Below, piece by piece: positions 25,223 to 43,662 of a stretch of 64,000 nt of DNA; position 1 is the stretch's first letter, and the number at the start of each line of letters is the position of its first letter. Location of the stretch: contig NZ_CP007151.1 in the NCBI RefSeq assembly GCF_000830985.1, positions 1,612,001-1,676,000 on the forward strand, given 5' to 3'. A program made the position numbers and the translations under genes. Source of the stretch: Marinobacter similis. Its GTDB lineage: Bacteria > Pseudomonadota > Gammaproteobacteria > Pseudomonadales > Oleiphilaceae. The notes beneath the pieces were generated by a model, which saw only the letters and a program-made list of their open reading frames with translations, was not told the DNA's origin and did not search any database.

Positions 25223-25246
25223 GTTACTGCAGCAGTATTCGGCGTA

Positions 25247-26437
25247 TCACTGCTTAACTTTGATACGAGCCTCAACCCGGCGATTAGTCGCGCGGCCTTC
25301 GGCCGTGTCGTTGGAGGCGATGGGCTGTGTTTCGCCATAGCCTGTGGCGCTGACGCGTGCCGGGTTTACCCCAAGGGCATCAGTCAGGCGTGCGGCGACG
25401 GCTTCGGCGCGCAGCTGCGACAGGTTCTGGTTGTAGTCCGCGGCGCCTGTGCTGTCGGAATGGCCGGCAATCTCAACGATGGTTTCAGGGTTGGCCTTCA
25501 GGAAGTCCGCAACCCGGCGAATTTCGTCATCGTACGAATCACCGATTTCGGCGCTGTTGAGCGGGAACTGTACTTCGATTTCGAAGGTCTCGATGGTCTT
25601 GGTGATGCCTTCGCAGCCTTTGGCATCTACCTTGGCGCCAGCAGCGGTGTTCGGGCATTCGTCGATGCTGTTTACAACGCCGTCGTTGTCGCTGTCGAGT
25701 TCACAGCCGCGACCATCCACTTTGGCACCGCGTGGGGTGTTGGGGCAGGCGTCACGGGCATCGACAACGCCATCCTGGTCGCCATCAAGCTGGCAACCGG
25801 TGCGGTCGACTTTGGCGCCGGCAGGCGTGTTGGGGCACTGGTCTGCGCTGTCGATAACGCCGTCGTTGTCAGCGTCGGGCGGTGGAGGTGTGGCGTGCAC
25901 GAACGCCAGGCTCAGGCCCAGGGAAACCTGTGCGTCGAAGGTGCTGTCTTCAACGCCGTGGAATTTCCGAAGGTCGGCGCGCAGGGACACGATGTCGGTG
26001 ATGTTGTAACGCACACCGGCGCCTACATTGAATCGGGTTTCATCGTGGTTGCTGCCTGCGGTTCGTGGCGCTGCTGCGTCAGTGCCGAAATCGGCATGAC
26101 CGGCACCGGCTGACAGGTACGGGTTCCAGGCTTCTTCAGGCCCGGCGAAGTAGTAGATGGCGTCCATGCGGATTTCTTCGAAATCGGAAGAACCCAGCGC
26201 ACCTTCGCGATCGGCATCGGCCCGGGAGAACAGGGCTTCCACAGCCCAATTTGGAGTGAAGCGGTATTCAGCACCCACACCAAACGTACCGGTCTCGCTG
26301 AGCTCACGCTCATTGTCGAAGAACTGGTAGGCGGTAAACGGATTGATGTAGGTGGTAGCCTGGCGGTCTTCAGCCATTGCCGGTGATGCCAAGGTAGCCG
26401 TGACGGCAGCCATGACACATGATCGCATGATGCTCAT
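25247..26437 (-). CDS. OmpA-family outer membrane protein, copy 1
   Basis: The 396-residue protein has a signal peptide (MSIMRSCVMAAVTATLASPA, cleaved before AED). An eight-stranded-type beta-barrel follows (about 25-200). Three thrombospondin type-3 calcium-binding repeats come next (DADNDGVIDSADQCPNTPAG and two more), then a C-terminal OmpA peptidoglycan-binding domain with the GHSDSTGAADYNQNLSQLRA stretch. It should tether the outer membrane to peptidoglycan and may affect envelope stability. The start is fixed by AGGAGG before ATG 26437. It lies downstream of a paralogue with the same leader and signal peptide pattern. Confidence 0.93.
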   Translation of the reverse strand: MSIMRSCVMAAVTATLASPAMAEDRQATTYINPFTAYQFFDNERELSETGTFGVGAEYRFTPNWAVEALFSRADADREGALGSSDFEEIRMDAIYYFAGPEEAWNPYLSAGAGHADFGTDAAAPRTAGSNHDETRFNVGAGVRYNITDIVSLRADLRKFHGVEDSTFDAQVSLGLSLAFVHATPPPPDADNDGVIDSADQCPNTPAGAKVDRTGCQLDGDQDGVVDARDACPNTPRGAKVDGRGCELDSDNDGVVNSIDECPNTAAGAKVDAKGCEGITKTIETFEIEVQFPLNSAEIGDSYDDEIRRVADFLKANPETIVEIAGHSDSTGAADYNQNLSQLRAEAVAARLTDALGVNPARVSATGYGETQPIASNDTAEGRATNRRVEARIKVKQ

Positions 26438-26662
26438 GCAGAGCCTCCTGTCGAGTGGGTAGTAAAGAGCCGCAGATGCGGTAACGTCGGGTAATCCGAG
26501 AATTGGGTCAGTACAGCTGAAAAAGGTAACTGGCACTGAGGGTTATATCTGTACTAGCACGCAACGGGAGGTCATTTGGTTCCAGTCGTTTTGGGCCTTT
26601 GGCGTAAAGCTGGAGATAAGCTGAAAGGGAAGCTGAGAAATCAAAGAACGGTCGTGGTGAGC

Positions 26663-26694
26663 AAAAAAAGCGCCCAGGGTAGTGAGCGCTTTTT
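26663..26694 (-). terminator. Rho-independent terminator of ompA copy 2
   Basis: Complementary arms AAAAAGCGC (26665-26673) and GCGCTTTTT (26686-26694) flank a 12-nt loop. A seven-A run at 26663-26669 becomes the U-tract on the minus strand. It lies just after the copy 2 stop, so the two ompA genes are probably transcribed separately. Confidence 0.75.
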
Positions 26695-26715
26695 AGTTGC
26701 TGAGATGTTAGCGCA

Positions 26716-27854
26716 TTAACGCTGTACCTGGATGCGCGCCTCCACCCTGCGATTGGCTGCGCGGCCTTCGGCGGTGGTGTTGCTCGCTACGGGTTCTGTT
26801 TCACCGTAGCCCACTGCGGTAACGCGCTCGGGATCAATGCCGAGCGCGTCGGTAAGACGATCAGCAACGGCTTGGGCGCGGCGTTTGGACAGCGTCTGGT
26901 TGTAGTCCGCATCACCACGGTCGTCACTATGGCCACCAATTTCTACCACTGTCTCGGGGTGGGCCTTCACGAAATCGGCTACGCGACGAATTTCATTATC
27001 GTATTTGTTGCCAATAACGGAGCTGTTGGTCGGAAACTGTACCTCTACCTCGAAAGTTTCAATGGTTTCAGTCACACCTTCGCAACCGGTCGCATCGACA
27101 TCCGCTCCGGCAGTGGTGTTCGGGCACTGGTCGGCACTGTTGACGACACCATCGTTGTCAGCGTCCAGCTCACATCCGGCAGTGTTCACGCTATGCCAGC
27201 CTTGGTGCCGGGGCACTGGTCACGGCTATCGATCACGCCATCGTTATCGCTATCTGCAGGCTTCGCGGGAACCGGGGCAGGAGTCGGAGCAGGAGAGGGG
27301 GATGTTGTGGTTCGGGCAAACGCCAGGCTGAAGCCAAGCGAAACCTGAGTGTCGAATGTGCTTTCGTCGATACCGTGGAATTCACGGAGATCCCCGCGCA
27401 GCGAGAATTTGTCTGTGACGTTGTATCGCACGCCGGTACCCACGTTCACGCGTGTTTCATCGTGGTTACTGCCGGAGGTGCCCATGCGGGACGAGTCGTT
27501 ACCGAAATCAGCATGCCCGGCACCGAGCGATACGTAAGGGTTCCATTTTTCTTCCGGACCGGCAAAGTAGTAGGTGCCGTCCACACGAACTTCTTCAAAA
27601 TCGGAATCGCCGCTGCCGTATTTATGGTCGGCGTTGGCGCGAGAGTACACGCCCTCAATCGCCCAGTGCGGCAGGAAGCGGTATTCAACGCCAAAACCGT
27701 AAGTGGCGCTCTCGTCCAGGGACCGTTTGTCATCAAAGTACTGAAATCCCGCAAAGGGGTTGATGTAAATCGTGTCCCGGCGTTCTTCGGCTATAGCTGG
27801 CGTGACCAACGTGGCGGCAACCGCAGCCATGGCACATGATCGCATGATGCTCAT
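26716..27854 (-). CDS. OmpA-family outer membrane protein, copy 2 (one frameshift)
   Basis: This is a paralogue of the downstream OmpA: similar signal peptide (MSIMRSCAMAAVAATL), the same AGGAGG leader, barrel, thrombospondin type-3 repeats and OmpA domain (GGHSDDRGDADYNQTLSKRR). It differs by a Pro-rich linker (SPSPAPTPAPVPAKP) after the barrel and by one fewer calcium repeat. The frame breaks near 27195 (GTKAG|SVNTAGCELD); one added base gives 380 codons. The pair is a tandem duplication. The C-terminal domains are close and the barrels more diverged. Confidence 0.87.
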
Positions 27855-28009
27855 GCAGAACCTCCTGTCCGACTTTTTGAGTTGAGTTCGCAGGTGCGAA
27901 GCGGGCGCAGTTTGGCATAAACCTGCCGCATATTTTAGTGCTTAACTGTGCGCGCGCATTCGAAACTCATTATTTTTACGTAATAAAAGTCGGATTGGTT
28001 TCAGTCGTT

Positions 28010-30280: not shown

Positions 30281-30378
30281 AGGGCGTATTGTACTGGCCA
30301 ACTGGTAGAGCGGGTACCCGTCCCGCATAATTGAAAAAACCTATTCAAAGTCATTTAACTACAACTCCGGGACCTGTC

Positions 30379-30487
30379 GCAGCCTTTTGGTTCGCTTTCC
30401 AAAACCCGCTCAAGCACGTCCATGTGACGCTTGAGCTCCGCCATCCATGGCTCCGCACAGTTTTGGAAAGCCGAACCAAAAGCCTGC
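30379..30487. repeat. Hairpin repeat element, copy A
   Basis: Inverted arms at 30379-30405 and 30460-30487 (27-28 nt, one bulge, one mismatch) flank a 54-nt core (30406-30459). The core holds two smaller hairpins with TCCA loops (CGTCCATGTG and GCCATCCATGGC). The core is identical, in inverted orientation, to that of copy C; the arms differ in sequence. It lies between the divergent helicase and DUF2237 genes. Confidence 0.85.
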
Positions 30488-30514
30488 TCACTTCTGGAGA
30501 TAGAGGACAAACCC

Positions 30515-30892
30515 ATGCAAATATCCGAATCCGTCAACGTACTTGGCGAAACCCTGGAAACCTGTGGCACCGATCCGAAAACCGGGTTCTACCGTGACGG
30601 CTGCTGCAACACCGGACCAGACGACCTGGGCTTTCACACCGTATGCGCGGTGGTTACCGATGCGTTTCTTGAATTCTCCAAAGCCAAGGGCAACGACCTG
30701 AGCACACCCCGGCCAGAATTCGGTTTCCCTGGCCTGCGGGAAGGTGACAGCTGGTGCCTGTGCGCGGCGCGCTGGCAGGAAGCCTTTGAAGCCGGCGCCG
30801 CCCCGCGGGTGCGGTTGAGGGCGACTCATCAGGCTACTCTGGAAATGTGCGAACTGAACGACCTGAAACGTCATTCGGTGGATCTCAGCTAA
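30515..30892 (+). CDS. DUF2237 family protein
   Basis: The 125-residue soluble protein matches the DUF2237 family closely: NVLGETLETC, DPKTGFYRDGCCNTG, GNDLSTPRPEFGFPGL and WCLCAARWQEA. Function is unknown; five conserved cysteines suggest metal or redox chemistry (inference). GAGG lies before the ATG. Its TAA shares one base with the tmcA ATG (TAATG), so the two genes are probably translationally coupled, which hints at a link to tRNA modification or translation. Confidence 0.88.
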   Translation: MQISESVNVLGETLETCGTDPKTGFYRDGCCNTGPDDLGFHTVCAVVTDAFLEFSKAKGNDLSTPRPEFGFPGLREGDSWCLCAARWQEAFEAGAAPRVRLRATHQATLEMCELNDLKRHSVDLS

Positions 30893-33043
30893 TGACTCCG
30901 GGTGTGCTCACGGCTGAGGAACTCGGCGCCTGGCAGTTATTCCAGCGTGGGCTGGTGCGGCGTGGTGAGCGCCGTCTTGTGCTGATTGAGGGTGGGCGCG
31001 CCCAGGCTCTGAGCTGGCTGGCGACGCTGTTGCCAGCGCTGGCCAAGGAGACTGGTGTCTGGGTGGGGGCTGACGCGGATCGGCCCGATTCAGCATTAAC
31101 ACCCATCGCATCCAAGCAAATTCGGCAATGGCTGGGCCGTGAGACTTCGGTGGTGGTCTGGGATGGCTGGCACGGCAATCCGCCAGATGCCTTTGCCGCT
31201 CTGTCGGGCACGCTGAAGGCGGGAGGCCTGCTGTTCTGGCTGATGCCGCCCCTGGATGAGTGGTCGAATTTCCCCGATCCGGATTACGCCCGAACCGGTC
31301 TGGATGACCTTCCTGAGCATCCCTTTGCCGCGCGAATGGCGGATTTGCTGGCGGCTGACTCAGAGGTAACTCGGGTAAAACCTGGCCAGTCGGCGTCAGT
31401 TGCTCTGCCCGTGCTGGCGGAACCGGATCAGCCATTTTCCGTGCAGACGACCGATGATCAGCGTGATCTGATTGATCGATTGGTGCGGTTTGGTCTGGGG
31501 CGGCGCCGCCGGCCAGTGGTTGTCACGGCGGACCGGGGCCGTGGTAAATCCGCAGCCCTGGGGATGGCCGCGGCCGAATTGCTGCGCCAGGGCCGGCGCC
31601 AGATTCTGGTAACTGCGCCGTCTCGGGACAATGTGGCGACACTGTTTCGCCACGCCCAGCACAGCCTTGGCGACGATATCCTCACAGTAACAGCGTCGAC
31701 ACTCGAAACCCGTGCGGGTGGCGGCGTGCGGTTCCTGGCTGCTCGGGATCTGCTGGCGGAGAAGCCGGAAGCCGAGGTGGTGCTGGTGGATGAGGCGGCA
31801 GCCCTGCCAGCGCCGCTGTTGAAGCAGATTTTGTTGGGTTGGCCACGGGTGGCTTTTGCGTCCACCGTGCATGGCTATGAGGGTGCCGGCCGTGGTTTCG
31901 CCATTCGTTTCCGGCAGGTTCTGGATCGGGAAACACCGCACTGGCAAGCGATGACTCTTAGCGCTCCGATTCGCTGGTCCGCCACCGATGCCCTGGAACC
32001 GTTAATCTCCCGCCTGTTCCTGCTGGCGGCTGAAAGTCCTGAGTTGGCGCCCGAGACCTTGGACGCAGCCGACGTCATTATCGAACCCATTGAGCCCCGG
32101 CACTTGGACGATCAACAATTGTCGGAGGCGTTCGGGTTGTTGGTGGACGCGCACTACCGCACTACGCCAGCGGATCTCCGGCAATGGCTGGATGCGACAG
32201 CTGTGCGCAGTTGGCGCGCCCGGGTTGGTAATACTACCGTGGGAATTCTCTGGGGTGTAATTGAGGGTGGCCTCAGCCTGAACTGGCGGAACAGGTAACC
32301 CTGGGTCAACGACGGCTTCGTGGTCACCTGTTGCCGCAATCGCTGGCCAGTCACAGCGGGTTCCCGGAAGCAGCCAGTCAGCAATGCTTGCGAATTACCC
32401 GGATTGCTGTGGCTGACCAGGCTCGTCGGCTGGGTGTTGGCCGCCGGTTGGTGGCTGCGGCAAGGCAGGCCGTCATGCAGGAAGGTCTGGATACGCTTGG
32501 CACCAGCTTTGGTGGCAGTGAGGAATTGCTGCAGTTCTGGCGTGCCTGCGATTTGGTCCCGGTGCGCCTGGGCCTGAATCAGGAAGCTAGCAGCGGCGAG
32601 TATCCGCTGCAGATGCTGGACGGCCTCAGTGCTGTCGGCCAGGAGCTGGTTGCGCGCCTGCAGCAACGCCTGGCCGAACACTGGCCAACCTTGCTGCCGT
32701 TGCCTGGCCGGCGCTGAATGCCCGGCTGGCGGCAGCCCTGAGTGCTCAGTTGCCTGCCACCAGTCGTCTCTGTGACGATGACCGGCGAGACTTGCACAGT
32801 TTTGCCCATGGCCATCGTGGCTTTCTGCTCTCGTTGCCTGTCCTGCGTAAGACCTGTGCCGTGTCGGGCGTGGCCTCCTGGCTGGAAGCCCAGGACGAAT
32901 TGCCGCTGTGGATTGCTGCCGTCCAGCAACAACAGAGCTGGCCGACGCTGCAGGGGCAGGGCCTGTGTCTGGGGCAGCGCGATGGAGAAGATCGACTGCG
33001 GGCATTGGTTCGTCAACTTCTGCAAAACGGCCCGGAGTTGTGA
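30892..33043 (+). CDS. tmcA: tRNA(Met) cytidine acetyltransferase TmcA (two frameshifts)
   Basis: TmcA makes N4-acetylcytidine at the wobble base of elongator tRNA-Met, using acetyl-CoA and ATP. Visible parts are the helicase-like ATPase (Walker A TADRGRGKSAALG; Walker B VLVDEAAALP), the GNAT acetyltransferase domain (RITRIAVADQARRLGVGRRL) and the C-terminal tRNA-binding region. Two frameshifts: near 32278 (GGLS|PELAEQVTLG, one C missing) and near 32702 (TLLPL|AWPALNARL, one G missing). The corrected length is 718 codons, against about 670 in E. coli. It overlaps the DUF2237 stop by one base. Confidence 0.88.
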
Positions 33044-33114
33044 CCCGCTCGATTTAATTCTGCCGCGCCGCTGCCCAGAATAGGCTCACTCCAAACCGAT
33101 TGAGACCGTTTGTT

Positions 33115-33810
33115 ATGGCCAAGGGAACCGGCTACTCCCGCTGTCTGTTGTTGTCCTGTGTTGTGATCTTCGCTTGGCTGTCCGGCTGCGCCACCTCCGT
33201 TGAACCCACCAATCTGACCCAGGAAACCTCTACCATTGCCGCCACGCCGTTGATGGCGGCAGCCGCCTCTGGAAACCTGGATCGGGTCGCGGCACTGACT
33301 GAAGCGGGTGAATCACTCAATACTCTGACCGAAAACGGCTCGCCACTGATGGCTGCGGTTGCGGCCAAACAAGATCGGATTGTCTGGTATCTGCTGTCGG
33401 AGGGGGCGGCGCCGGATTTGGCTGCAGTGGGTGCCCAAACGCCGTTGATGGTGGCGTCGGCGCAGGGGAGTCGGCGTCTGGTGCAATTACTGTTATCGGC
33501 CGGGGCCCAGGTTAATGCCAGCAACGCTGATGGCTATAGCCCGGTCATGCGTGCCGCTGAGCAGGGCCATTTGTCCGTGGTGAAGGTACTGCTGGCGGCG
33601 GGGGCGAACGTTAATGTCAGTCAGGGCGGTGAGTCGTTGCTGATGAAGATTGTTGGCAGTGGCGACCTGCTGACCGCAGAAATGCTGTTGGCCGCAGGCG
33701 CTGATGTGAACTATCGGTCGCCGCAAGGCCGCACGGCGCTGGATGTGGCCCGGGCCAACAACAGTCAGGATCTTGATATGTTGCTGGTCCAGGCGGGCGC
33801 CAGGCACTAA
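33115..33810 (+). CDS. Ankyrin-repeat lipoprotein
   Basis: The 231-residue protein has a lipoprotein signal: basic N-terminus, hydrophobic LLLSCVVIFAW and lipobox LSGC, so a lipid-anchored periplasmic protein. Five ankyrin-like repeats follow (TPLMAAAASGNLDRV, SPLMAAVAAKQDRI, TPLMVASAQGSRRL, SPVMRAAEQGHLSV, then a TALDVARANN ending). Ankyrin repeats mediate protein binding; the partner is unknown. ATG 33115 gives the natural signal peptide. The gene converges on the enoyl-CoA hydratase-family gene with only 3 bp between them. Confidence 0.85.
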   Translation: MAKGTGYSRCLLLSCVVIFAWLSGCATSVEPTNLTQETSTIAATPLMAAAASGNLDRVAALTEAGESLNTLTENGSPLMAAVAAKQDRIVWYLLSEGAAPDLAAVGAQTPLMVASAQGSRRLVQLLLSAGAQVNASNADGYSPVMRAAEQGHLSVVKVLLAAGANVNVSQGGESLLMKIVGSGDLLTAEMLLAAGADVNYRSPQGRTALDVARANNSQDLDMLLVQAGARH

Positions 33811-33813
33811 GCC

Positions 33814-34917
33814 TCAGCCGAGCTGCATGGGGTCGGTCTGGTCGTCCCATTCCGGTTGAAAGTGTGCCTCCACTACCTCGGCGGGAACGTCGCTAACCGA
33901 GTTGTACGACCAGATTGGTCGTTGATCCTTGTCCACCAATCGCGCCCGAATGCCTTCCGGCAGATCCGGGCGCCGAGTGCATTCCATCGCCATCGCCAAT
34001 TCCATGCGCAGCACATCCTTGAAGGACATTTGCTGGGCTTTTTGGAGTTGGCTCCAAACCAGCCAGGCCGTAACCGGGCAGCCGCTCCGCAGGTTGCTCA
34101 TGCAGGCATTCCACCATTCGCTGTCGATTTCCGCTGACAGCAGTTGGTCGACAATTTCCGGCAGTTCATCACCTGCGCTCAGCCGGGCAATGTGCTGTTC
34201 GTGCTGCTCCAGATTGCTGCGCTGAAGGCTGCGATAGTCCGGAGCATGCATCTGGCTCAACAGCCGGAACAGACGGTTGTCATCTGCGGCTGCCTGGCCG
34301 GTCCAGCGTTGGTCCTGCAAGGTGCGGAGCATGAGGTCGCGGTCTTCCGGCTGCAACACCATGTCGGCGAGGCCAATTCGAATACTGTCGGTAATGTTCA
34401 GCCGCGCCCCGGTCAGGCCCATGAAAAGACCGATCCGGCCCGGCAGGCGGTTCAGAAACCAGCTGGCGCCGACGTCGGGAAACAGTCCAATCGAGATTTC
34501 GGGCATGGCCATGGTCACGTCCGGCGTTGCCAGCCGGTAGCGGCAGGCCGACAACAGTCCGAGACCACCACCCATGACCGCACCGTGGGCTACGCCCACC
34601 ACTGGTTTCGGAAACCGGTGCAAGCTGTCGATCAGTCGGTACTCATTGGTGAAAAAGCGTGCCGGTGCATCGGGTTCGCCAGCGCCACGGATAGCGCTGT
34701 ACAGCTTGCGGATATTGCCACCGGCGCAAAACGCTCGCTCCCCTTCGCCCTGCAGCACCACCAGGCAGATCTGGTCGTCCTCCGCCCAGCCGTCGAGGGC
34801 GCATTGGAGGTCATTGACCATGGCCTCTGTGAGCGAGTTGAGTGAGGCGGGGGCATTCAGTGTCAGCAGGCCAATTCGGCCTTCCAGGCATTCAAGTTCC
34901 TGAACTGCTATGGACAT
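33814..34917 (-). CDS. Enoyl-CoA hydratase/isomerase family, probable 3-hydroxyisobutyryl-CoA hydrolase
   Basis: The 367-residue crotonase-fold protein has FCAGGNIRKLYSA (oxyanion-hole region), GAVMGGGLGLL and TMAMPEISIGLFPDVGASW. The length, the IGLFPDVG segment and the C-terminal extension fit 3-hydroxyisobutyryl-CoA hydrolase (valine breakdown) better than a plain enoyl-CoA hydratase of about 260 residues. ATG 34917 (MSIAVQELECLEG) follows GGAG; the longer form is unlikely. No other valine catabolic gene is adjacent, so the substrate is inferred from the family only. Confidence 0.82.
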   Translation of the reverse strand: MSIAVQELECLEGRIGLLTLNAPASLNSLTEAMVNDLQCALDGWAEDDQICLVVLQGEGERAFCAGGNIRKLYSAIRGAGEPDAPARFFTNEYRLIDSLHRFPKPVVGVAHGAVMGGGLGLLSACRYRLATPDVTMAMPEISIGLFPDVGASWFLNRLPGRIGLFMGLTGARLNITDSIRIGLADMVLQPEDRDLMLRTLQDQRWTGQAAADDNRLFRLLSQMHAPDYRSLQRSNLEQHEQHIARLSAGDELPEIVDQLLSAEIDSEWWNACMSNLRSGCPVTAWLVWSQLQKAQQMSFKDVLRMELAMAMECTRRPDLPEGIRARLVDKDQRPIWSYNSVSDVPAEVVEAHFQPEWDDQTDPMQLG

Positions 34918-35079
34918 TGAGGGAGTCTCCGGTGTTCGAGAATCATCTGGGCGCAAAAGCTATTGTTTTAACGCGTTTGGCTGGGCCGTGCTCTGTGTTA
35001 TAAGAACACAGCAGGTTATAAAACCAGTATCCACTACCGGTGGGCAAAAACCAAAAACGAAGAAGAGAGGGTAAAGACA

Positions 35080-35414
35080 ATGGAACTGAAACACTACGCC
35101 GTTGCGGGAATTTTTGCGCTCAGTGCCGCCATTCCGGGCTTCGCCACTGCGGCTGACGCTGCCGCAGGTAAGGCCAAGGCCGCCGTATGTGCTGCCTGCC
35201 ATGGCCAGAATGGCATTGCCAGATTCCGACTTACCCGAATTTGGCGGGCCAGAACGAACAATACCTGGTCGCTGCTATCAAAGCCTATAAGAACAAGCAG
35301 CGCACCGGTGGTCAGGCCGCCATCATGCAGGGCCAAGCCGCGGCTTTGAGCGACACGGACATTGCCAATCTGGCGGCCTATTTCGCCAGCCTGCCGGCGG
35401 ATGGCGGTAAGTAA
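35080..35414 (+). CDS. Small class I cytochrome c (one frameshift)
   Basis: The secreted monohaem cytochrome has about 111 residues after correction. A signal peptide ([20 protein letters not shown], cleaved after ATA) precedes the haem-binding CAACHGQNG. The distal Met lies in the [11 protein letters not shown] region, and the end LAAYFASLP is typical of cytochrome c4/c5-like proteins. It should carry electrons in the periplasm. The frame breaks near 35220 ([15 protein letters not shown]), where one C is missing. It is divergent from the hydrolase gene, and GAGAGGG precedes the ATG. Confidence 0.85.
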
Positions 35415-35455
35415 GGCCGCTCCACCGAGGGCTGTTTAACGGTCAGTGTGGCGGT

Positions 35456-36838
35456 TCAATCCGCCTCACTGACGATGCGATAGCTGGGGTGGTACGCCGA
35501 AGAGCCGGGCAGCTTCATCCGGTTCTGCGCCACAAACTGAGCCAGCATGGCTTCCAGGGGTTTGATCAGCGTGGGGTCGCCGGCGATTTCGAACGGTCCC
35601 CGGGCCTGAACCTGACGAATACCATCCTCTTTGACGTTACCCGCAACAATGCCGCTGAAGGCTTTGCGCAGATTCGCTGCAATCAGGTGTACCGGCTGGT
35701 CGCGGTGCAATTCCAGGTCACGCATGTTTTCGTGATTGGGGTGGAAGGGTAGCTGGAACACCGGATCGATTTTCAGCATCCAATTGAAGTAGTACGCGTC
35801 CTGCATGGCACGCCGGAAGGTTTCCACATCCTTCATACCTTTCTTCATGGTCTGGGCTACCCGCACCGGATCATCAATGATGATTTCGTACTTCTTGGCC
35901 GCTTCGTCGCCCAGGGCGTTACGAATGAACTTGTCGATCATTTCGAAGTATTCCGCGTTTTCCTGCTTGCCGGTAAAGACCACCGGGAAGGGCAGGTCGG
36001 CGTTGTCCGGGTGCAGAAGAATACCGAGGAGGTACAGGATTTCTTCAGCGGTGCCCACGCCGCCGGGGAACACGATCACCCCGTGGCCACAACGAATAAA
36101 GGCTTCAAGCCGTTTTTCGATGTCCGGCATGATCACCAGCTCGTTGACGATCGGGTTCGGCGCCTCGGCACCGATGATGCCGGGTTCGGTGATGCCGATG
36201 TAGCGTCCGTTCTTCACTCGTTGCTTGGCGTGGGCGATGGTGGCGCCTTTCATCGGGCCTTTCATGGCGCCGGGGCCACAGCCGGTGATGATGCTCAGTC
36301 CACGCAGGCCCAGTTGGTGTCCCACTTCCTTGCTGTACTGGTACTCATCGTGGCTGATGGAGTGACCACCCCAGCACACCACCAGATCCGGCTGACGACC
36401 GGCTTCCAGAACCCGGGCATTGCGCAGCACGTGGAACACCAGGTTGGTCAGGTCCTCGGGATCGTCGCGGCGGAAACCGCTGGCAGACTGGGGAATCGAG
36501 TGGGAATAGATGATGTCCCGAAGCACCGAGAACAGGTGCTCGCGGATGGCTCTCAGCATTTCTCCGTCGACAAAGGCGTGGGCCGGCGCATTGACCAGCT
36601 CCAGCTTCAGTCCGCGCGGCTGCGGCACCAGGTGCACGTCAAAGTCTGCGTGGGCTTCCATCAGGGCCTTACAGTCGTCGGTTTCTACGCCGGTGTTGAG
36701 GACCGCCAGGGCGCATTGGCGGAATAATCTGTACAGGCCGCCCTCGCTTCGGTCCTTAAGGCGATTCACCTCATGGTTGGAGAGAATTTCAAGGCTGCCT
36801 TCTGGTGATACCAAAGCATTGATGGTGGGTTCTTGCAT
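35456..36838 (-). CDS. ppnN: Nucleotide 5'-monophosphate nucleosidase PpnN
   Basis: The 460-residue intact PpnN (YgdH) resembles the E. coli enzyme in length (454). Its LOG-type core shows GGHSISHDEYQ, GCGPGAMKGPMKGA and PGGVGTAEEILYL, which bind the nucleotide phosphate and form the active site. PpnN cleaves purine and pyrimidine monophosphates to base and ribose 5-phosphate and is stimulated by (p)ppGpp in E. coli. N- and C-terminal extensions beyond the LOG fold match PpnN rather than plain cytokinin-type LOG proteins. It is divergent from thiI. Confidence 0.93.
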   Translation of the reverse strand: MQEPTINALVSPEGSLEILSNHEVNRLKDRSEGGLYRLFRQCALAVLNTGVETDDCKALMEAHADFDVHLVPQPRGLKLELVNAPAHAFVDGEMLRAIREHLFSVLRDIIYSHSIPQSASGFRRDDPEDLTNLVFHVLRNARVLEAGRQPDLVVCWGGHSISHDEYQYSKEVGHQLGLRGLSIITGCGPGAMKGPMKGATIAHAKQRVKNGRYIGITEPGIIGAEAPNPIVNELVIMPDIEKRLEAFIRCGHGVIVFPGGVGTAEEILYLLGILLHPDNADLPFPVVFTGKQENAEYFEMIDKFIRNALGDEAAKKYEIIIDDPVRVAQTMKKGMKDVETFRRAMQDAYYFNWMLKIDPVFQLPFHPNHENMRDLELHRDQPVHLIAANLRKAFSGIVAGNVKEDGIRQVQARGPFEIAGDPTLIKPLEAMLAQFVAQNRMKLPGSSAYHPSYRIVSEAD

Positions 36839-36986
36839 GAACGAAACAACTCCTGAATGTTGCCGGCCGGGCGGGGAAGGTTGCCAAACGGGCCGGTGTC
36901 TCGGCTATGCCTGATTTTGAGGCATGGTATTTAAAAGGTAGACTAAGTGCTTTAAACCTTATACGCCACTCGACAATATTCCGATT

Positions 36987-38440
36987 ATGAAATTACTTAT
37001 TCGTCCCGCCCCAGAAGTCGCTATCAAGAGCAAGCCGGTGCGCCGACAGCAGATGCGGCACCTGCGGCAGAATATCCGAAAGCTACTGGCTCGGCTGGAT
37101 AGTGCCATCGTAGTTGAGGGCACCTGGGACCGGGTAACGGTTGAGTTTCCCGATGATCGCGGTTTGTCCGGGATGGTGTTGGACGCCCTGCTGCGCATTC
37201 CCGGGATTTCCACCATTCAGGAAATTGGCGTGTTCCCGTTTGTGGATCTTGATGACATCGCGGACAAGGCGGTGGAAGCGTTTGCCGAGCGGCTGAAAGG
37301 GCAGACCTTTGGAGTTCGGGTCCGTCGGCACGGCGACCACAAATTCCGCTCCAGTGAATTGGAGCGGATTGTCGGCTCGGCTCTGATGCAGGCCTCCGAG
37401 GCCGCAGGCGTGAACCTGAAATCGCCCGATGTGGAAGTGCGGATCGAGGTGCAGGATGACCACTTTCACATCGCCCACCGCAAACACCGCGGGCTCGGCG
37501 GCTATCCCCTGGGCAGCGTCGAAACCGTGATGACGTTGATTTCCGGCGGTTACGACTCATCGGTGGCCGCTTACCTGATGATGCGTCGAGGTCTGCGCAG
37601 TCACTTCCTGTTCTTCAACCTCGGCGGTACTGCCCACGAGGTGGGGGTGCGCCAAGTGGTGCATTACCTGTGGGAGCAGTATGGCGCGTCCCACAGTGCC
37701 AAGTTTATTTCAGTGCCGTTTGATGGCGTGATTGCGGAAATCATGCGTTCGGTCAATCACCGCCATTGGGGCGTGGTACTGAAGCGCCAGATGCTGAAGC
37801 GGCCGCCGAGATCGCAAAAAAGAACAACGCCATTGGCCTGGTGACCGGCGATGCGGTGGCCCAGGTTTCGAGTCAGACCCTGAGTAACCTCAACGTGGTG
37901 GATCGCGCCAGTGACGAGGTTGTTCTGCGCCCGCTGGTGTCCATGGACAAGGAAACCATCATCAACATTGCCCGTGAGATTGGTACCGAGTCATTCGCTC
38001 GCAACATGCCGGAGTACTGCGGGGTCATCTCCCAGAAGCCGGCGACCCGCGCCAAGTTGCACAAAGTCGAAGCGGATGAGGAAGAGATGGACGCAGCGGT
38101 TCTGGCCAGCGCGGTCGAGGCTCGTGAAGAAACGGCCATCAGCCGCCTGCTGGATACCACCACCACGCCAGAAGATGTCGAGCTGGTGGAAACGCCGGGA
38201 GTGGAGGACGTGATTATCGACGTCCGTCACCCGTTCGAGGGCGAACAATCACCGCTGAAGCTGACCAATAACGAGGTGATGAAAATTCCGTTTTATAAGC
38301 TGAATCAGAGAGTTGCGGAATTGCCCGGCGACCGCCAGTACCTGTTGTACTGCGACCGCGGAGCCATGAGCCGGATGCACGCCGGCCATCTGAAGTCTGA
38401 AGGGCACGCCAACATCAAGGTTTACGCGCCCGCCTCCTGA
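36987..38440 (+). CDS. thiI: tRNA 4-thiouridine synthase ThiI with rhodanese domain (one frameshift)
   Basis: ThiI inserts sulfur at U8 of tRNA and supplies sulfur for thiazole. In order it has a ferredoxin-like region and THUMP (about 1-170), the PP-loop ATP-binding motif SGGYDSSVA (about 187-195), the AANH domain and a C-terminal rhodanese (about 385-484). Both functional cysteines are present: EYCGVISQKP (disulfide partner) and YLLYCDRGAMS (persulfide carrier). The frame breaks near 37799 (KRQMLK|AAEIAKKNN), one G missing; the corrected length is 484 residues, normal for the long form. Confidence 0.93.
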
Positions 38441-38444
38441 GCCT

Positions 38445-39458
38445 TTAGCCGGCAAGACCCTTGAAGAACTGCTGGACGTTTTCGCTCAGCGTTTCCAGAT
38501 CATAGCCGCCCTCCTGCACCACCAGCGTTGGTAATCCCAGCTGGCGGATGTGGGAGCTGAGCCGGCAAAAGCCTTCCGACGTGACCGAAACCTTAGCTTG
38601 CGGGTCGTTCTGGTAGATATCGAAGCCCAGTGCGAGCACCAGCACGTCGGGCTGGTACAGCTTGAGCGCCGCCAGTGACTCGTCCAGCTTGTCGAAGAAA
38701 TCGTCTTCCGATGCGCCGTGGGGCATCGGCATATTGATGTTGTAACCGAAGCCGTCGCCTTCTCCGCGCTCGTTTTCAAAGCCGGTCACCACCGGGTAGA
38801 AATTGGTCGGGTCGCCGTGGATCGAGATGTACAGCACGTCACTGCGATCGTAGAAAATCTCCTGAATCCCCTGGCCGTGGTGCATGTCGGTATCGAGGAT
38901 GGCGATGCGCGGGAACCGGGTCTTCAGGTGCTCGGCGGCAATGGCGGCGTTGTTCAGGTAGCAGAAACCGCCGGCGGCGTCCTTACGGGCGTGGTGGCCT
39001 GGCGGGCGACACACGGCGTAGGCGGTACGATCACCAGCAATCAGGGCGTCGGCGGCTCCGAGTGCGGTTTGTGCAGACCAGTAGGCGGCATTCCAGGTAT
39101 TGGCGCCAATGGGGCAGCTGCCGTCGGCCTGGTAGCGGGCGGCTTCCGCCAGGATGCCGGTCAGGTGGTTCGGTGACCGAACAAAGATGTTGGAAATCAC
39201 CTCCTCGCCCCAGTCGTCCATCTTCATCCAACGCCGATGCGCCGATTCCAGGAAGCGCAGGTAGCCGAGGTCGTGCACCTTGGAGATCGGCGCGGCGCCC
39301 TGGTCGGCCGGCTGCAGAACCGGAATCCCCATCTCCTTCAGGCCTTCCAGCATCTGACCGGTGCGATCGGGTACCTCCTGCGGCTGGCGCATCTGCCCGC
39401 GAGTGAAGTAGGTCTGCGGAATATGCTGATCCTGGGCAGGATGGAAAAACGCTTTCAT
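38445..39458 (-). CDS. Histone deacetylase-family hydrolase, probable acetylpolyamine amidohydrolase
   Basis: The 337-residue intact zinc hydrolase has PPGHHARKDAAGGFCYLNN (active-site histidine pair), DTDMHHGQG (zinc ligands) and the EGGYD segment. The opening (FHPAQDQHIPQTYF) and the long insert fit bacterial acetylpolyamine amidohydrolases (AphA type) better than AcuC. It would deacetylate acetylputrescine or similar. It is divergent from gabD across 171 bp. Acetylputrescine to putrescine to GABA to succinate semialdehyde would lead straight to GabD, so a shared polyamine role is plausible (inference). Confidence 0.82.
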   Translation of the reverse strand: MKAFFHPAQDQHIPQTYFTRGQMRQPQEVPDRTGQMLEGLKEMGIPVLQPADQGAAPISKVHDLGYLRFLESAHRRWMKMDDWGEEVISNIFVRSPNHLTGILAEAARYQADGSCPIGANTWNAAYWSAQTALGAADALIAGDRTAYAVCRPPGHHARKDAAGGFCYLNNAAIAAEHLKTRFPRIAILDTDMHHGQGIQEIFYDRSDVLYISIHGDPTNFYPVVTGFENERGEGDGFGYNINMPMPHGASEDDFFDKLDESLAALKLYQPDVLVLALGFDIYQNDPQAKVSVTSEGFCRLSSHIRQLGLPTLVVQEGGYDLETLSENVQQFFKGLAG

Positions 39459-39629
39459 TAGCTGACCTCCTAGGTTCTACAAGCCCCTGAGTGTGGGTGC
39501 CTCAGAGGGCGATTAAAAGCCCGGCCATCGACTTTACAGCCAGTGATTCAGCATCCACTATGGAAGACATATTCAACCTACGCAACTGTGTCCCGCAGGA
39601 TATGGCTACTGACAGAAAGAGGAGCCAAG

Positions 39630-41081
39630 ATGATCGAGTCACCACTGCTGGAAAAGCTCAATGGCTATATCGGCGGTCGCTGGACGGATAATGCACAGGG
39701 CAACACCTTTGATGTGTTCAATCCGGCGACGGGCGATGTGATCGCAAAAGTCGCTTCCATGTCGGAATCCGAGGTGGAAGATGCCGTTGCTGCTGGCAAG
39801 TCGGCTTTGCGCCTGACCAGCCCCTACTCCATCGAAACCCGCCGCAAGTGGCTGGAAGACATCCGGGATGCGCTGAAGGCGAACAAGGAAGAGGTCGGCC
39901 GGATTCTGTGCATGGAACACGGCAAGCCGTTGCACGAAGCCCAGGGTGAGGTGGATTACGCAGCGGGATTCTTCGATTACTGCTCCAAGCACATTCAGGC
40001 GCTGGACGCCCACACCATTCCGGAAAAGCCGAAAGACTGCACCTGGACGGTTCACTACCGCCCGGTGGGCGTAACCGGATTGATCACGCCCTGGAACTTC
40101 CCGATCGGTATGATCGCCAAGAAGCTGTCAGCCGCGCTGGCGGCGGGCTGCCCGTCGGTGATCAAACCGGCCAGTGAGACACCGCTGACCATGATTGCCC
40201 TGTTCACGCTTATGGACCAGCACACCGACATGCCTGATGGCATGGTTAACCTGGTGATGGGCAAGGCCAGCGTGATCGGCAAGGTGCTGTGCGAGAGCCC
40301 GGACGTGCCGATGCTGAGCTTTACCGGGTCCACTGAAGTGGGCCGGAAACTGATCGTCGACACCGCCGATCAGGTCAAGAAGCTGGCGTTGGAACTGGGC
40401 GGGAACGCACCGTTCATCGTCTTCGACGACGCCGACCTGGACGCCGCCGCCGATAACCTGATCGCCAATAAGTTCCGCGGTGGTGGCCAGACCTGCGTCT
40501 GTGCCAACCGTATCTTCGTGCATGAAAAGGTGGCCGACGCCTTCGGTGAAAAACTCGCCGAGCGCGTGAACAAGATGACCGTGGGCGATGGCATCAACGG
40601 TGATGTCGATCTTGGCCCGCTGATCAACAAGGCCGGTTTCGACAAGGTGAAGCGGCACCTGGAAGACGCGCTCGAGCAGGGCGCCAGCCTGGTGGCCGGC
40701 AAGCAGCCGGGCGATCTGGGTGATGGTCTGTTCTTCCCGCCGACGGTTATTACCGACGTCACCCGGGATATGTGCTGCTACCGCGAGGAAACCTTCGGGC
40801 CGCTGGTTCCGATGGCGCTGTTCCGCACCGAAGAGGAAGTTATCGAAGCCGGTAACGATACCGAGTTCGGTCTGGCCTCTTACGTGTTCACCGGTGACGC
40901 CGAGCGCGCCCAGCGCGTGGCTGCCGGCCTGCGCTTTGGCCACTGCGGCTGGAATACCGGTACCGGTCCCACGCCGGAAGCGCCATTTGGCGGCATGAAG
41001 GCCTCAGGCACTGGTCGCGAAGGCGGCCTGGAAGGTCTGTTCGAGTTTGTCGAAGCGCAGACGGTGCCGCGCGGTTTTTAA
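39630..41081 (+). CDS. gabD: NAD(P)-dependent succinate-semialdehyde dehydrogenase
   Basis: The 483-residue intact aldehyde dehydrogenase oxidises succinate semialdehyde to succinate. Catalytic E255 (LELGGNAPF) and C289 (GGGQTCVCANR) are in place, and NAD(P) contacts occur in TPWNFP and FTGSTEVG. The neighbouring C291 is the residue used for redox control in some GabD enzymes. Length and the SFTGSTEVGR pattern fit GabD. ATG 39630 with AAGAGGAG upstream is preferred; a longer frame begins at 39543. It is followed by a hairpin repeat with a T-run. Confidence 0.93.
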   Translation: MIESPLLEKLNGYIGGRWTDNAQGNTFDVFNPATGDVIAKVASMSESEVEDAVAAGKSALRLTSPYSIETRRKWLEDIRDALKANKEEVGRILCMEHGKPLHEAQGEVDYAAGFFDYCSKHIQALDAHTIPEKPKDCTWTVHYRPVGVTGLITPWNFPIGMIAKKLSAALAAGCPSVIKPASETPLTMIALFTLMDQHTDMPDGMVNLVMGKASVIGKVLCESPDVPMLSFTGSTEVGRKLIVDTADQVKKLALELGGNAPFIVFDDADLDAAADNLIANKFRGGGQTCVCANRIFVHEKVADAFGEKLAERVNKMTVGDGINGDVDLGPLINKAGFDKVKRHLEDALEQGASLVAGKQPGDLGDGLFFPPTVITDVTRDMCCYREETFGPLVPMALFRTEEEVIEAGNDTEFGLASYVFTGDAERAQRVAAGLRFGHCGWNTGTGPTPEAPFGGMKASGTGREGGLEGLFEFVEAQTVPRGF

Positions 41082-41122
41082 CCTAAAAGCAGAAGCTGGC
41101 AGCCCTTAAGTATTGAGCTGTC

Positions 41123-41234
41123 GCACGGGGGAACGTCCCCTTCAGGACACGCTACGAGCACATCCATGTGCGCTTGGGTGTGGCCATCCCTGGCCACACA
41201 CAGTCCTGAAGGAGACGTTCCCCCGCGCTTTTTC
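41123..41234. repeat. Hairpin repeat element, copy B (ends in a T-run)
   Basis: Inverted arms (41123-41148 and 41203-41228, near-perfect over 22 bp) flank a 54-nt core (41149-41202). The core aligns with copies A and C with one gap each way. It contains hairpins GCACATCCATGTGC and GTGTGGCCATCCCTGGCCACAC. The right arm is followed by TTTTT (41229-41233), so it could terminate gabD transcription. Confidence 0.82.
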
Positions 41235-41341
41235 TGACACTCGGTGATGGCTTATCGGAACTTTCGCCCCTCGCGGAAATCCCCTTTTTCTCCTGTTATA
41301 CTTCCACTCCTGTTTATTTAACCAGTAGCGAACGTTTTCCT

Positions 41342-43506
41342 ATGGATGTCTCTCACATAATCGACCCTCTCAATGATGCCCAGCGCGAGGCCGTCACCGC
41401 CCAGAACGATCACCTGCTGGTGCTGGCAGGGGCCGGCAGTGGCAAGACCCGGGTACTGGTGCATCGAATTGCGTGGTTGATGACGGTGGACCGGGTGCCG
41501 CCGACTGGCATCCTGGCGGTGACCTTTACCAACAAGGCCTCCAAGGAAATGCGTTACCGCATCGAACAGATGATGGACATCCCGGCTCGTGGCCTCTGGT
41601 TCGGCACCTTCCACGGCATTGCTCACCGATTGCTGCGCTCACATTGGCAGGACGCAGGGTTACCGGAGAACTTCCAGGTGTTGGACAGCGACGACCAGCT
41701 GAGGATGGTCAAGCGGGTAATGCGGGAAAACCAGATTGATGAGAGCAAGTGGCCGCCCAAGCAGGCGCAATGGTTTATCAACAGCCAGAAAGATGAAGGC
41801 TTGCGGGCGGACCACATTCAGGATAATCCGGGCGATCACTTCACCTCAACAATGCTGAAGATCTATCGCCAGTACGAAACCCTGTGCCAGCAGGGCGGCC
41901 TGGTGGATTTCGGGGAGCTGCTGCTGCGCTCCCACGAACTCTGGCTGCACCGACCGGAACTACTCGCCCATTACCAGAAGCGGTTCCAGCATATTCTGGT
42001 GGACGAGTTCCAGGATACCAACACCATTCAGTACGCTTGGCTGCAGGTGCTGGCTAGCCAGCAGGTGCCGCTGACGGTCGTTGGTGATGATGACCAGTCC
42101 ATCTATGGCTGGCGCGGCGCCAAGGTTGAGAATATCCAGCAGTACCAGCGCGATTTCCCCAATGCCCGTTTGGTGCGGCTGGAGCAGAATTACCGATCCA
42201 CACAGATGATCCTGAAGGCGGCCAACGCGGTGATCGCCAATAACCAGGGCCGGCTGGGCAAAGAGTTGTGGACCGACGGACCTGACGGCGAGCCCATCAG
42301 CCTGTATGCCGCTTTTAACGAGCAGGACGAAGCTAACTACATTGCCGATAGCATCTCCGCCTGGGTTCAGGACGGCAACCTGCGTAGTGAGTCGGCCATT
42401 CTCTATCGCTCTAATGCCCAGTCACGAGTGCTGGAAGAAGCGTTGATGCGCCAGGGTATTCCGTACCGGGTCTACGGCGGCCTTCGGTTCTATGATCGCC
42501 AGGAAATCCGTAACGCGCTGGCCTACCTGCGCCTGGTCCAGTATCGCCGCGACGATGCCGCATTCGAACGGGTGGTAAACCTCCCGCCCCGGGGCATAGG
42601 CGCCAAGAGCCTGGCTGAGCTGCGGGAATATGCGACTGAACAGAGCATTTCGCTCTGGGAGTCGGCGGAACGGCTACTGGAAGCCGGTCAGGTTAAAGGC
42701 CGGGCCAAGACCGGATTGCAGTCCTTTATCTCGATCATTGAGGGTCTGTCCGGCATGGTGGGCGATGCCAGCCTGCATGGCTTGATGAAGCAGACCATCG
42801 AAGACAGCGGCCTGAAGAACTACCACGCCAGTGAAAAGGGCGAGAAAGGTCAGGCCCGGGTGGAGAACCTGGAAGAATTGGTTAACGCGCTGTCGGATTA
42901 CGAGGTAGAAGACGGTGTCGACCCGATGGCCGAGTTCATTGCCCAAGCCGCCCTGGATGCGGGCGAGGCTCAGGCGGAGGCCCATGAGGACAGTGTTCAG
43001 CTGATGACGCTGCACTCCGCCAAGGGCCTGGAATTCCCGATGGTGTTCCTGGCTGGCGTTGAGGAGGGCTTGTTCCCCCATGCATGTCGCTGGAAGAGCC
43101 GGGACGCATGGAAGAAGAGCGCCGCTTGGCCTATGTCGGTATTACCCGTGCCATGCAAAAGCTGGTGCTCACTTACGCTGAATCCCGCCGCTTATACGGC
43201 CAGGAAAAGTTCAACGCGCTGTCCCGGTTCGTGCGTGAAATTCCTGCCGACTGTCTACAGGAAGTCCGGCTGCGCAATACCGTCACGCGCCCGGCGATGC
43301 TGGAACGCCCCAATGAGAGCATGTTCAGCCAGGATTCCGCCCAACAGTCCGGGTTTAGCCTGGGTCAGCGGGTACGGCATCCGAAGTTTGGCGAGGGTGT
43401 GGTGATGAATTCGGAAGGAAGCGGGCATCATACCCGGGTGCAGGTGAACTTTGACGACGGTGCCAAGTGGTTGGTGCTGGCGTATGCGCCTTTGGAAGCC
43501 TGCTAG
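41342..43506 (+). CDS. uvrD: DNA helicase II UvrD (one frameshift)
   Basis: UvrD unwinds DNA in nucleotide-excision and mismatch repair. It shows Walker A GAGSGKTRVLVHRI, Walker B LVDEFQDTNTIQ, motif III DDDQSIYGWRGA, motif V LHSAKGLEF and motif VI YVGITRAMQ. A C-terminal tail (LGQRVRHPKFGEGVVMN) matches the UvrD/PcrA RNA-polymerase-binding Tudor-like region. The corrected length is 721 residues, as in E. coli (720). The frame breaks near 43082 (EEGLFPH|MSLEEPGR). No strong SD precedes ATG 41342. Hairpin repeats lie on both sides of the gene. Confidence 0.95.
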
Positions 43507-43528
43507 TTTCGGGCTATTCGGAGATCGC

Positions 43529-43638
43529 GCAGGCGTCGGGTAAAGCTTCCCAAAACTGTGCGGAGCCATGGATGGCGGAGCTCAAGCGTCACATGGACGT
43601 GCTTGAGCGGGTTTTGGGGAGCTTTACCCGATGCCTGC
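43529..43638. repeat. Hairpin repeat element, copy C
   Basis: Arms of 28 nt (43529-43556 and 43611-43638) pair along their whole length with two G-U type positions. The 54-nt core (43557-43610) is the exact reverse complement of the copy A core, although the arm sequences are different. It lies between the convergent uvrD and uppP genes. Confidence 0.88.
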
Positions 43639-43662
43639 TTCCCCAAGGCCGAGCTTAAGACC

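What the first reader, a model, noticed from the sequence alone, without database searches (positions are those of the whole stretch)
30379..43638. A family of intergenic hairpin elements with a fixed 54-nt core and variable but self-complementary arms
Copies lie at 30379-30487, 41123-41234 and 43529-43638. The 54-nt cores of the first and third are identical, in opposite orientation; the second has a 54-nt core that aligns with one gap each way. The outer arms (22-28 bp) differ in sequence between copies yet pair within each copy, and mismatches in copy C are of the G-U type. Core 2 keeps its own hairpin (GTGTGGCCA/TGGCCACAC) although the bases changed. Pairing kept while sequence changes points to selection on structure: a palindromic mobile repeat (REP/MITE-like), a structured RNA, or a processing or termination signal. 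I do not know a named family that fits.
Basis: partly seen in the sequence, partly recalled or inferred. Interest (0 to 1): 0.78.

Follow-up and report, generated by a model that had tools for sequence, protein, structure and literature searches.

The report
Interspersed twin CsrA-site hairpin repeats
This bacterium, likely a Marinobacter, carries 52 copies of a hairpin element, mostly just past the ends of genes, whose two loops match the known binding site of the RNA-binding regulator CsrA while its long stem keeps pairing as its sequence changes; it is predicted to act as an RNA that binds CsrA, which would make a scattered repeat family part of a global regulatory circuit.

Summary
The three hairpins belong to a family with 52 clear copies in this genome and copies in all 37 sampled genomes of the genus (likely Marinobacter). 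Each copy has a stem of about 29 bp, unique in sequence, carrying two small hairpins.

The structure is conserved: 96.8% of cells pair (67.3% in shuffles). One strand matters: on the strand with GGA loops, arm mispairs are G-U 193 times and A-C 12 times, in every gene orientation, and the bias also shows in recent point changes.

The loops read CANGGANG, the published RsmE/CsrA consensus. Between two species the N positions changed at 32 of 148 sites, the six fixed ones at 1 of 444.

Closest known: Rfam TwoAYGGAY, already proposed to bind CsrA; every copy that matched it scored below its cut-off.

Best explanation: a dispersed CsrA-binding RNA element, likely a distributed CsrA sink. Binding and transcription are untested; absence of strand preference relative to genes speaks against a simple cis role. 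No Y1/RAYT transposase was detected.

Unexplained: the core can invert in place, close pairs have one arrangement (22 of 22), and arms plus flanks are rewritten as a block at over half of orthologous sites.

The parts
30378..30492 (-). copy 1 of the element (whole hairpin, GGA strand is minus)
   Evidence: R1 match G000:C1:1642378-1642492, 115.1 bits
30442..30449 (-). copy 1, hairpin A loop site CATGGATG
30417..30424 (-). copy 1, hairpin B loop site CATGGACG
41120..41235 (-). copy 2 of the element (second subtype of core; GGA strand is minus)
   Evidence: R1 match G000:C1:1653120-1653235, 95.1 bits
41185..41192 (-). copy 2, hairpin A loop site CAGGGATG
41161..41168 (-). copy 2, hairpin B loop site CATGGATG
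43524..43639 (+). copy 3 of the element (GGA strand is plus)
   Evidence: R1 match G000:C1:1655524-1655639, 126.2 bits; TwoAYGGAY 32.9 bits, below cut-off 43
43567..43574 (+). copy 3, hairpin A loop site CATGGATG
43592..43599 (+). copy 3, hairpin B loop site CATGGACG

Best explanation
These repeats are likely a dispersed family of CsrA-binding RNA elements: the strand with GGA loops, once transcribed, is predicted to fold into a stem of about 29 bp topped by two hairpins whose loops match the CsrA/RsmA site and would hold one CsrA dimer. Shown by calls: the family, its copy number, arms that pair but are free in sequence, selection on the GGA strand in particular, and loops conserved at the six fixed positions of CANGGANG. 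The stem's sequence would be free because it only has to clamp the two hairpins side by side. How copies spread and how arms are rewritten is not explained.
For: 96.8% of cells paired, 564 cells changed on both sides against 158 in shuffles. Non-Watson-Crick arm pairs on the GGA strand: G-U 193, A-C 12, other 95, in 96 of 99 copies (without the filter 199:15), in all four gene contexts (66:2, 40:5, 62:3, 24:2); 52:4 in the 25 seed copies found by pattern alone; one-sided changes at 16 kept loci WC-GU 18, WC-AC 3. GGA strand more stable as RNA in 50 of 52, 43 of 47 and, in other genera, 16 of 18. CANGGANG in both hairpins in 51 of 52 and 44 of 47 copies. N positions changed 32 of 148, fixed positions 1 of 444, rest of core 63 of 1332. 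Site spacing 23-25 nt in 95 copies, inside the published 10-63 nt bridging range (PMC7652899); consensus as published (PMC6849547). CsrA in 40 of 41 genus genomes; own CsrA intact.
Against: No strand preference relative to genes: sense 17, antisense 12 here; 14 and 12 in G028; nearest stop codon 19:13 and 18:16. No promoter signal upstream of the GGA strand. In some other genera one loop is CACGACG, without GGA (L155, L160). G-T over A-C would also be expected for a single-stranded DNA hairpin. No expression or binding data.
Confidence: 0.6

Rival explanations
1. A selfish mobile repeat whose single-stranded (RNA or DNA) GGA-strand hairpin is read by its own or a borrowed mobility protein; the loops are its recognition site and host CsrA is irrelevant or hijacked.
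For: High and variable copy number across the genus, occupied and empty orthologous sites, no orientation rule relative to genes, strict minus-plus order of close pairs, selected strand independent of gene direction.
Against: Selection acts in place on copies kept since two species split (core 0.986 against flank 0.914). No two copies share arms, so no recent copying was seen. No Y1/RAYT gene in four copy-rich genomes, no repeated flanking gene in 30 loci each of two genomes, no match in phage or plasmid records.
Confidence: 0.2
2. A 3'-end hairpin that stops transcription or shields mRNA 3' ends from exonucleases; the loops are secondary.
For: Median 24 nt (36 of 42 within 60 nt) behind the nearest stop codon; 42 of 52 copies have one within 400 nt. 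Convergent contexts 16, divergent 7. T is somewhat enriched after the stem on the TCC strand (4.87 against 3.17 in 18 nt); copy 2 has TTTTT there.
Against: No T-run on the GGA strand, the selected one. Loop positions are the most constrained part, which a stem-only role does not need.
Confidence: 0.12
3. A DNA cruciform kept paired by palindrome correction or template switching, without RNA function.
For: At rewritten loci most arm differences are both-sided and paired: 181 both-sided paired, 20 both-sided unpaired, 94 one-sided in 38 of 44 usable pairs. The core inverts between the arms.
Against: A cruciform is symmetric between strands, but G-U exceeds A-C 16 to 1 on one strand, also among one-sided changes at kept loci, which are seldom corrected there.
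Confidence: 0.08

Closest known systems
TwoAYGGAY RNA, Rfam RF01731 (Weinberg 2010 PMC2864571, one table passage seen; CsrA proposal in PMC4333381, passages seen)
   Same: Two adjacent hairpins with A-N-GGA-N loops inside a poorly conserved outer stem; gammaproteobacteria; proposed CsrA binding.
   Different: 17 matches in 16 of 20 loci, best 39.6 bits, all below the 43-bit cut-off. N in the loops is not only Y. Here high-copy, in either orientation, invertible.
CsrB/RsmZ-type CsrA sponge RNAs
   Same: Several GGA-loop hairpins on one RNA, predicted CsrA titration.
   Different: Not one promoter-driven sRNA gene but 52 dispersed copies with two sites each; no promoter signal; RF00018 and RF00166 do not match the genus (0 of 21 genomes each).
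REP/BIME/REPIN elements (REPIN paper PMC3116915: abstract and outline seen)
   Same: Extragenic palindromic repeats in high copy, often as inverted pairs, predicted to fold as single strands.
   Different: No Y1/RAYT gene detected in this and three other copy-rich genomes; conserved core inside non-conserved arms; no arms shared between copies.

Membership tests
TwoAYGGAY RNA (RF01731) | score at or above the gathering cut-off of 43 bits | tested here: not met
   best 39.6 bits; 17 matches in 16 of 20 loci, many with weak E-values up to 7.8; own genome 1 match, 36.4 bits, with stricter filters
TwoAYGGAY RNA (RF01731) | two hairpins with AYGGAY loops | tested here: met
   two ANGGAN loops in 51 of 52 copies; the Y positions are often but not always Y
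CsrA/RsmA-bound RNA | ANGGAN hexaloop hairpins, two sites 10-63 nt apart | tested here: met
   definition from PMC7652899 passages
CsrA/RsmA-bound RNA | GGA-dependent binding of CsrA | not testable with these tools
   needs gel shift or CLIP
CsrB/RsmZ-type sponge | own promoter-driven small RNA gene | tested here: not met
   no sigma70-like enrichment upstream of the GGA strand: 5.84 against 5.75 downstream, 99 copies; matrix from memory
REP/REPIN | associated RAYT (Y1) transposase | tested here: not met
   PF01797: 0 in G000, G028, G001, G019; present in 23 of 41 genus genomes
MITE | target-site duplication | tested here: inconclusive
   none seen in G000-only sites L037, L199, L208; sites differ by about 30 nt more than the element on each side
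intrinsic terminator | T-run directly after the stem | tested here: not met
   GGA strand 3.17 T in 18 nt; other strand 4.87, a mild excess

The most novel reading that the evidence does not exclude
The genus has replaced or supplemented a CsrB/RsmZ-type sponge by a genome-wide repeat: dozens of invertible twin-site elements past gene ends titrate CsrA in proportion to total transcription, each copy able to flip between a CsrA-binding (GGA) and a silent (UCC) form in the local transcript, with a local process that rewrites both arms at once.
Probability: 0.25. Interest if true: 0.85.

Novelty: new variant of a known kind. Interest (0 to 1): 0.64.

Why it matters
If right, a dispersed repeat, a class often filed as junk or selfish DNA, carries selected binding sites for a global RNA regulator, and the unexplained Rfam family TwoAYGGAY gains a natural history (dispersed, invertible, strand-selected) and a test system. 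The stems that always pair, never repeat and change in blocks pose a separate open question about how such stems are renewed.

Tried and rejected
RAYT-driven REP: rejected as required driver, because PF01797 gave 0 matches in four copy-rich genomes. Rfam at gathering: no match in the window.

Arms copied from other copies or elsewhere: longest common runs equal a column-shuffled control in G000 and in G028. A search with 28 nt of each of the 52 arms found the arms, their partners and orthologues, and three hits of chance quality in G028 (E 0.2-0.7); in G000 only 40 of 70 candidate places were scored. Arms derived from the target: not seen at the empty sites read.

Replacement by an unrelated copy: disfavoured, because locus-specific core variants stay while arms and flanks change (L211/L227, L056/L146), though L034/L150 changed subtype. 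Import from a distant strain: disfavoured, because sequence 40-120 nt away is 90-100% identical at clean loci (L205, L034, L197, L056, L211, L036, L038).

Strand-specific deamination as cause of the G-U excess: C/T 11 and A/G 10. Replication-strand bias: looked at by eye only, origin unknown, no call. Own promoter: no signal. Helper gene: no repeated DNA besides elements and overlapping loci in 30 loci each of G000 and G028. Phage and plasmid collections: no match to a 76-nt query.

Literature: the listings showed no paper on an interspersed repeat with CsrA sites; only open-licence papers are held.

Caveats: gene calls come from a codon model of my own. Copies of G000 and G028 are mostly orthologous, so not independent. 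conditions on the motif in G000 and uses 37 of 44 pairs. In one search the per-column tables use only copies with exactly two motif matches. R1 was built on the GGA strand. Several genes in the window are split between frames, so G000 may hold indel errors. Some of the 23 'rewritten' loci (L039, L049, L050, L057, L232) involve extended or paired elements and align poorly. RsmX, RsmY, RsmW and CsrC were not searched; the RsmZ search had no ringing control over cut-off. Eight copies had no orthologous element: one was then found as an extended form (L204 minus copy), one as a deletion remnant (L200), three as absent (L037, L199, L208), three were not resolved (L031, L051, L045).

Full report
WHAT IS THERE. 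The three hairpins are real. Their core motif occurs elsewhere in the genome. From 25 copies found by that pattern I made an alignment (A1) and a covariance model (R1, 116 positions, 38 pairs). R1 finds 54 matches in the own genome at E <= 0.01; I use the 52 below 1e-12 and drop two weak ones. Of 58 genomes searched as relatives (own included) 40 are positive: all 37 of the own genus, with 2 to 64 matches where 64 was the number scored, and 3 of 21 from other families of the order. An identical 62-nt core occurs in two named contigs, both Marinobacter, so the genus is most likely Marinobacter; the species was not established.

ANATOMY. On the strand with GGA in the loops: an outer stem of median 29 bp (52 copies), hairpin A with most often CATGGATG and hairpin B with most often CATGGATG or CATGGACG, 23-25 nt apart in 95 copies. 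The outer 28 nt of the arms are no more alike between copies than column-shuffled controls. On 52 distinct copies 96.8% of cells pair, 564 cells are changed on both sides (shuffles 158), covariation score 0.778 (shuffles 0.197, slid registers at most 0.161). That alignment is fitted to the structure; the MAFFT seed alignment gives 30 of 38 predicted pairs with a both-sided change.

ONE STRAND IS SELECTED. On the GGA strand the arm pairs that are not Watson-Crick are G-U 193 times, A-C 12 and other 95, in 96 of 99 copies of G000 and its nearest sampled relative G028; three copies with fewer than 18 Watson-Crick pairs were left out, and with them it is 199 and 15. It holds in co-directional sense (66:2), co-directional antisense (40:5), convergent (62:3) and divergent (24:2) contexts. 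The 25 seed copies, found without a structure model, give 52:4. In 16 orthologous copies with few changes one-sided differences are WC-GU 18, WC-AC 3, WC-other 7, made of C/T 11 and A/G 10 among others, so this is not a deamination bias. As RNA the GGA strand is more stable in 50 of 52 and 43 of 47 copies, and in 16 of 18 RF01731 matches from other genera, one of them a 31-nt piece; 2 of 20 loci were not usable. What is kept is the fold of one single strand, RNA or single-stranded DNA, whichever way the neighbouring genes point.

THE LOOPS ARE CsrA-TYPE SITES. Both hairpins carry CANGGANG in 51 of 52 copies here and 44 of 47 in G028; background 0.037 per 116 nt and strand. In 37 of 44 orthologue pairs, conditioned on the motif in G000 only, N positions changed 32 of 148, the six fixed positions 1 of 444, the rest of the core 63 of 1332. 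Published: the RsmE consensus (A/U)CANGGANG(U/A) (PMC6849547 and PMC6692469, passages); ANGGAN hexaloop and bridging of sites 10-63 nt apart, best above 18 (PMC7652899, passages). CsrA is found in 40 of 41 genus genomes, the one without being 62% complete. The own CsrA is a 65-aa protein that aligns with solved CsrA chains over residues 1-57. The CsrB and RsmZ models find nothing in 21 genus genomes; the CsrB control rings in E. coli, the RsmZ search has no control over cut-off.

RELATION TO RFAM. Copy 3 matches TwoAYGGAY (RF01731) with 32.9 bits, E = 0.0012 in a 271-base search, cut-off 43. In 20 loci there are 17 matches at 16 loci, best 39.6 bits, E from 0.008 to 7.8, all below cut-off; 4 loci have none. 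In 369 genomes of the class RF01731 is found in 24 (15 over cut-off; 0 of 14 controls), in 6 of them at the limit of 7 scored, with adjacent inverted copies: TwoAYGGAY itself looks like a dispersed repeat there. PMC4333381 (passages) had proposed that TwoAYGGAY binds CsrA and says that its external stem is not well conserved. So the CsrA idea for this kind of RNA is not mine; the strand evidence, the loop rates and the repeat behaviour are what is added. In some genera one loop reads CACGACG, without GGA (L155, L160), which speaks against a uniform CsrA role.

CONTEXT. By codon-model gene calls copies lie close behind stop codons: median 24 nt, 36 of 42 within 60 nt, while 10 of 52 have no stop within 400 nt; in G028 median 23 nt, 35 of 42, 5 of 47 without. 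Here co-directional 29, convergent 16, divergent 7. The GGA strand is sense 17 and antisense 12 times in co-directional contexts here, 14 and 12 in G028: no clear preference, the main evidence against a simple cis 3'-UTR role.

TURNOVER. Against G028 (flanking sequence mostly 92-96% identical), 44 of 52 copies have an orthologous element, 41 in the same and 3 in the opposite orientation. Eighteen are kept (arms 0.949, core 0.986, flank 0-40 nt 0.914); 23 in the same orientation are rewritten (arms 0.643, core 0.879, flank 0-40 nt 0.571, flank 40-80 nt 0.842); intermediate cases exist. Control: 21 element-free intergenic regions of the window are 0.75-1.00 identical to G028. At 38 of 44 usable pairs 181 arm pairs changed on both sides and still pair, 20 changed on both sides and do not, 94 changed on one side; at kept loci one-sided changes are nearly the only kind. 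In the eight loci displayed, edges lie some 20-45 nt outside the arms and several keep a locus-specific core. The arms were not found elsewhere in either genome (partial scoring). In 7 G001/G019 element pairs displayed, 3 cores are inverted in place, one with three arm pairs changed on both sides. At uvrD-uppP, where both genes could be anchored, copies are kept, re-armed, inverted, doubled or absent. One locus lost the core by deletion and kept part of the arms (L200/L237). I have no mechanism for block rewriting.

PAIRS. In four genomes 22 of 22 close pairs (starts within 300 nt) have the order minus then plus, so that transcripts from either side would read a UCC form first and a GGA form last; at 300-1200 nt it is 9 of 10. 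Some pairs are orthologous, so the number of independent pairs is smaller. In the printed RF01731 list four pairs within 300 nt (G219, G329 twice, G423) have the same order, counted by eye.

MECHANISM AND CONFIDENCE. Most likely a dispersed RNA element that presents two CsrA sites on a rigid stem (0.6). Shown: fold, strand, loops, copy number. Inferred: transcription, binding, titration. Rivals: a selfish repeat read as a single strand (0.2), a 3'-end protection or termination hairpin (0.12), a DNA cruciform (0.08). It works like a CsrA-binding RNA and resembles TwoAYGGAY, but does not meet that family's cut-off: a new variant of a known kind.

Noticed in passing
L138, L139, L244 (G028); L241 (G000): Extended form of the element: about 80-100 nt with further small hairpins sit inside the hairpin B loop, at the same place in several loci. 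Ancestral long form or nested insertion is open.
   Followed up: partly
pairs such as L032, L049, L051, L057 (G000): Close inverted pairs always in the order minus-plus (22 of 22 within 300 nt in four genomes). No explanation.
   Followed up: partly
window 41342-43506, 36987-38440, 49039-50311, 1570-3248, 22621-23889: Several genes (uvrD-, thiI-, pstA-, ABC-transporter-like, FAD-oxidoreductase-like by eye) are split between reading frames in the ORF list: assembly indels or pseudogenes.
   Followed up: no
window 25242-27869: Two adjacent OmpA-like paralogues, about 70% alike in DNA (name by eye).
   Followed up: no
L002:1732-2017 (-), L018:2525-2706 (-): Rfam matches over cut-off near two copies: 5_ureB_sRNA (116.4 bits) and 6S RNA (87.8 bits).
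   Followed up: no
L155, L160 (other genera): RF01731 elements with one ANGGAN loop and one CACGACG loop, a lineage variant without GGA in one hairpin.
   Followed up: partly
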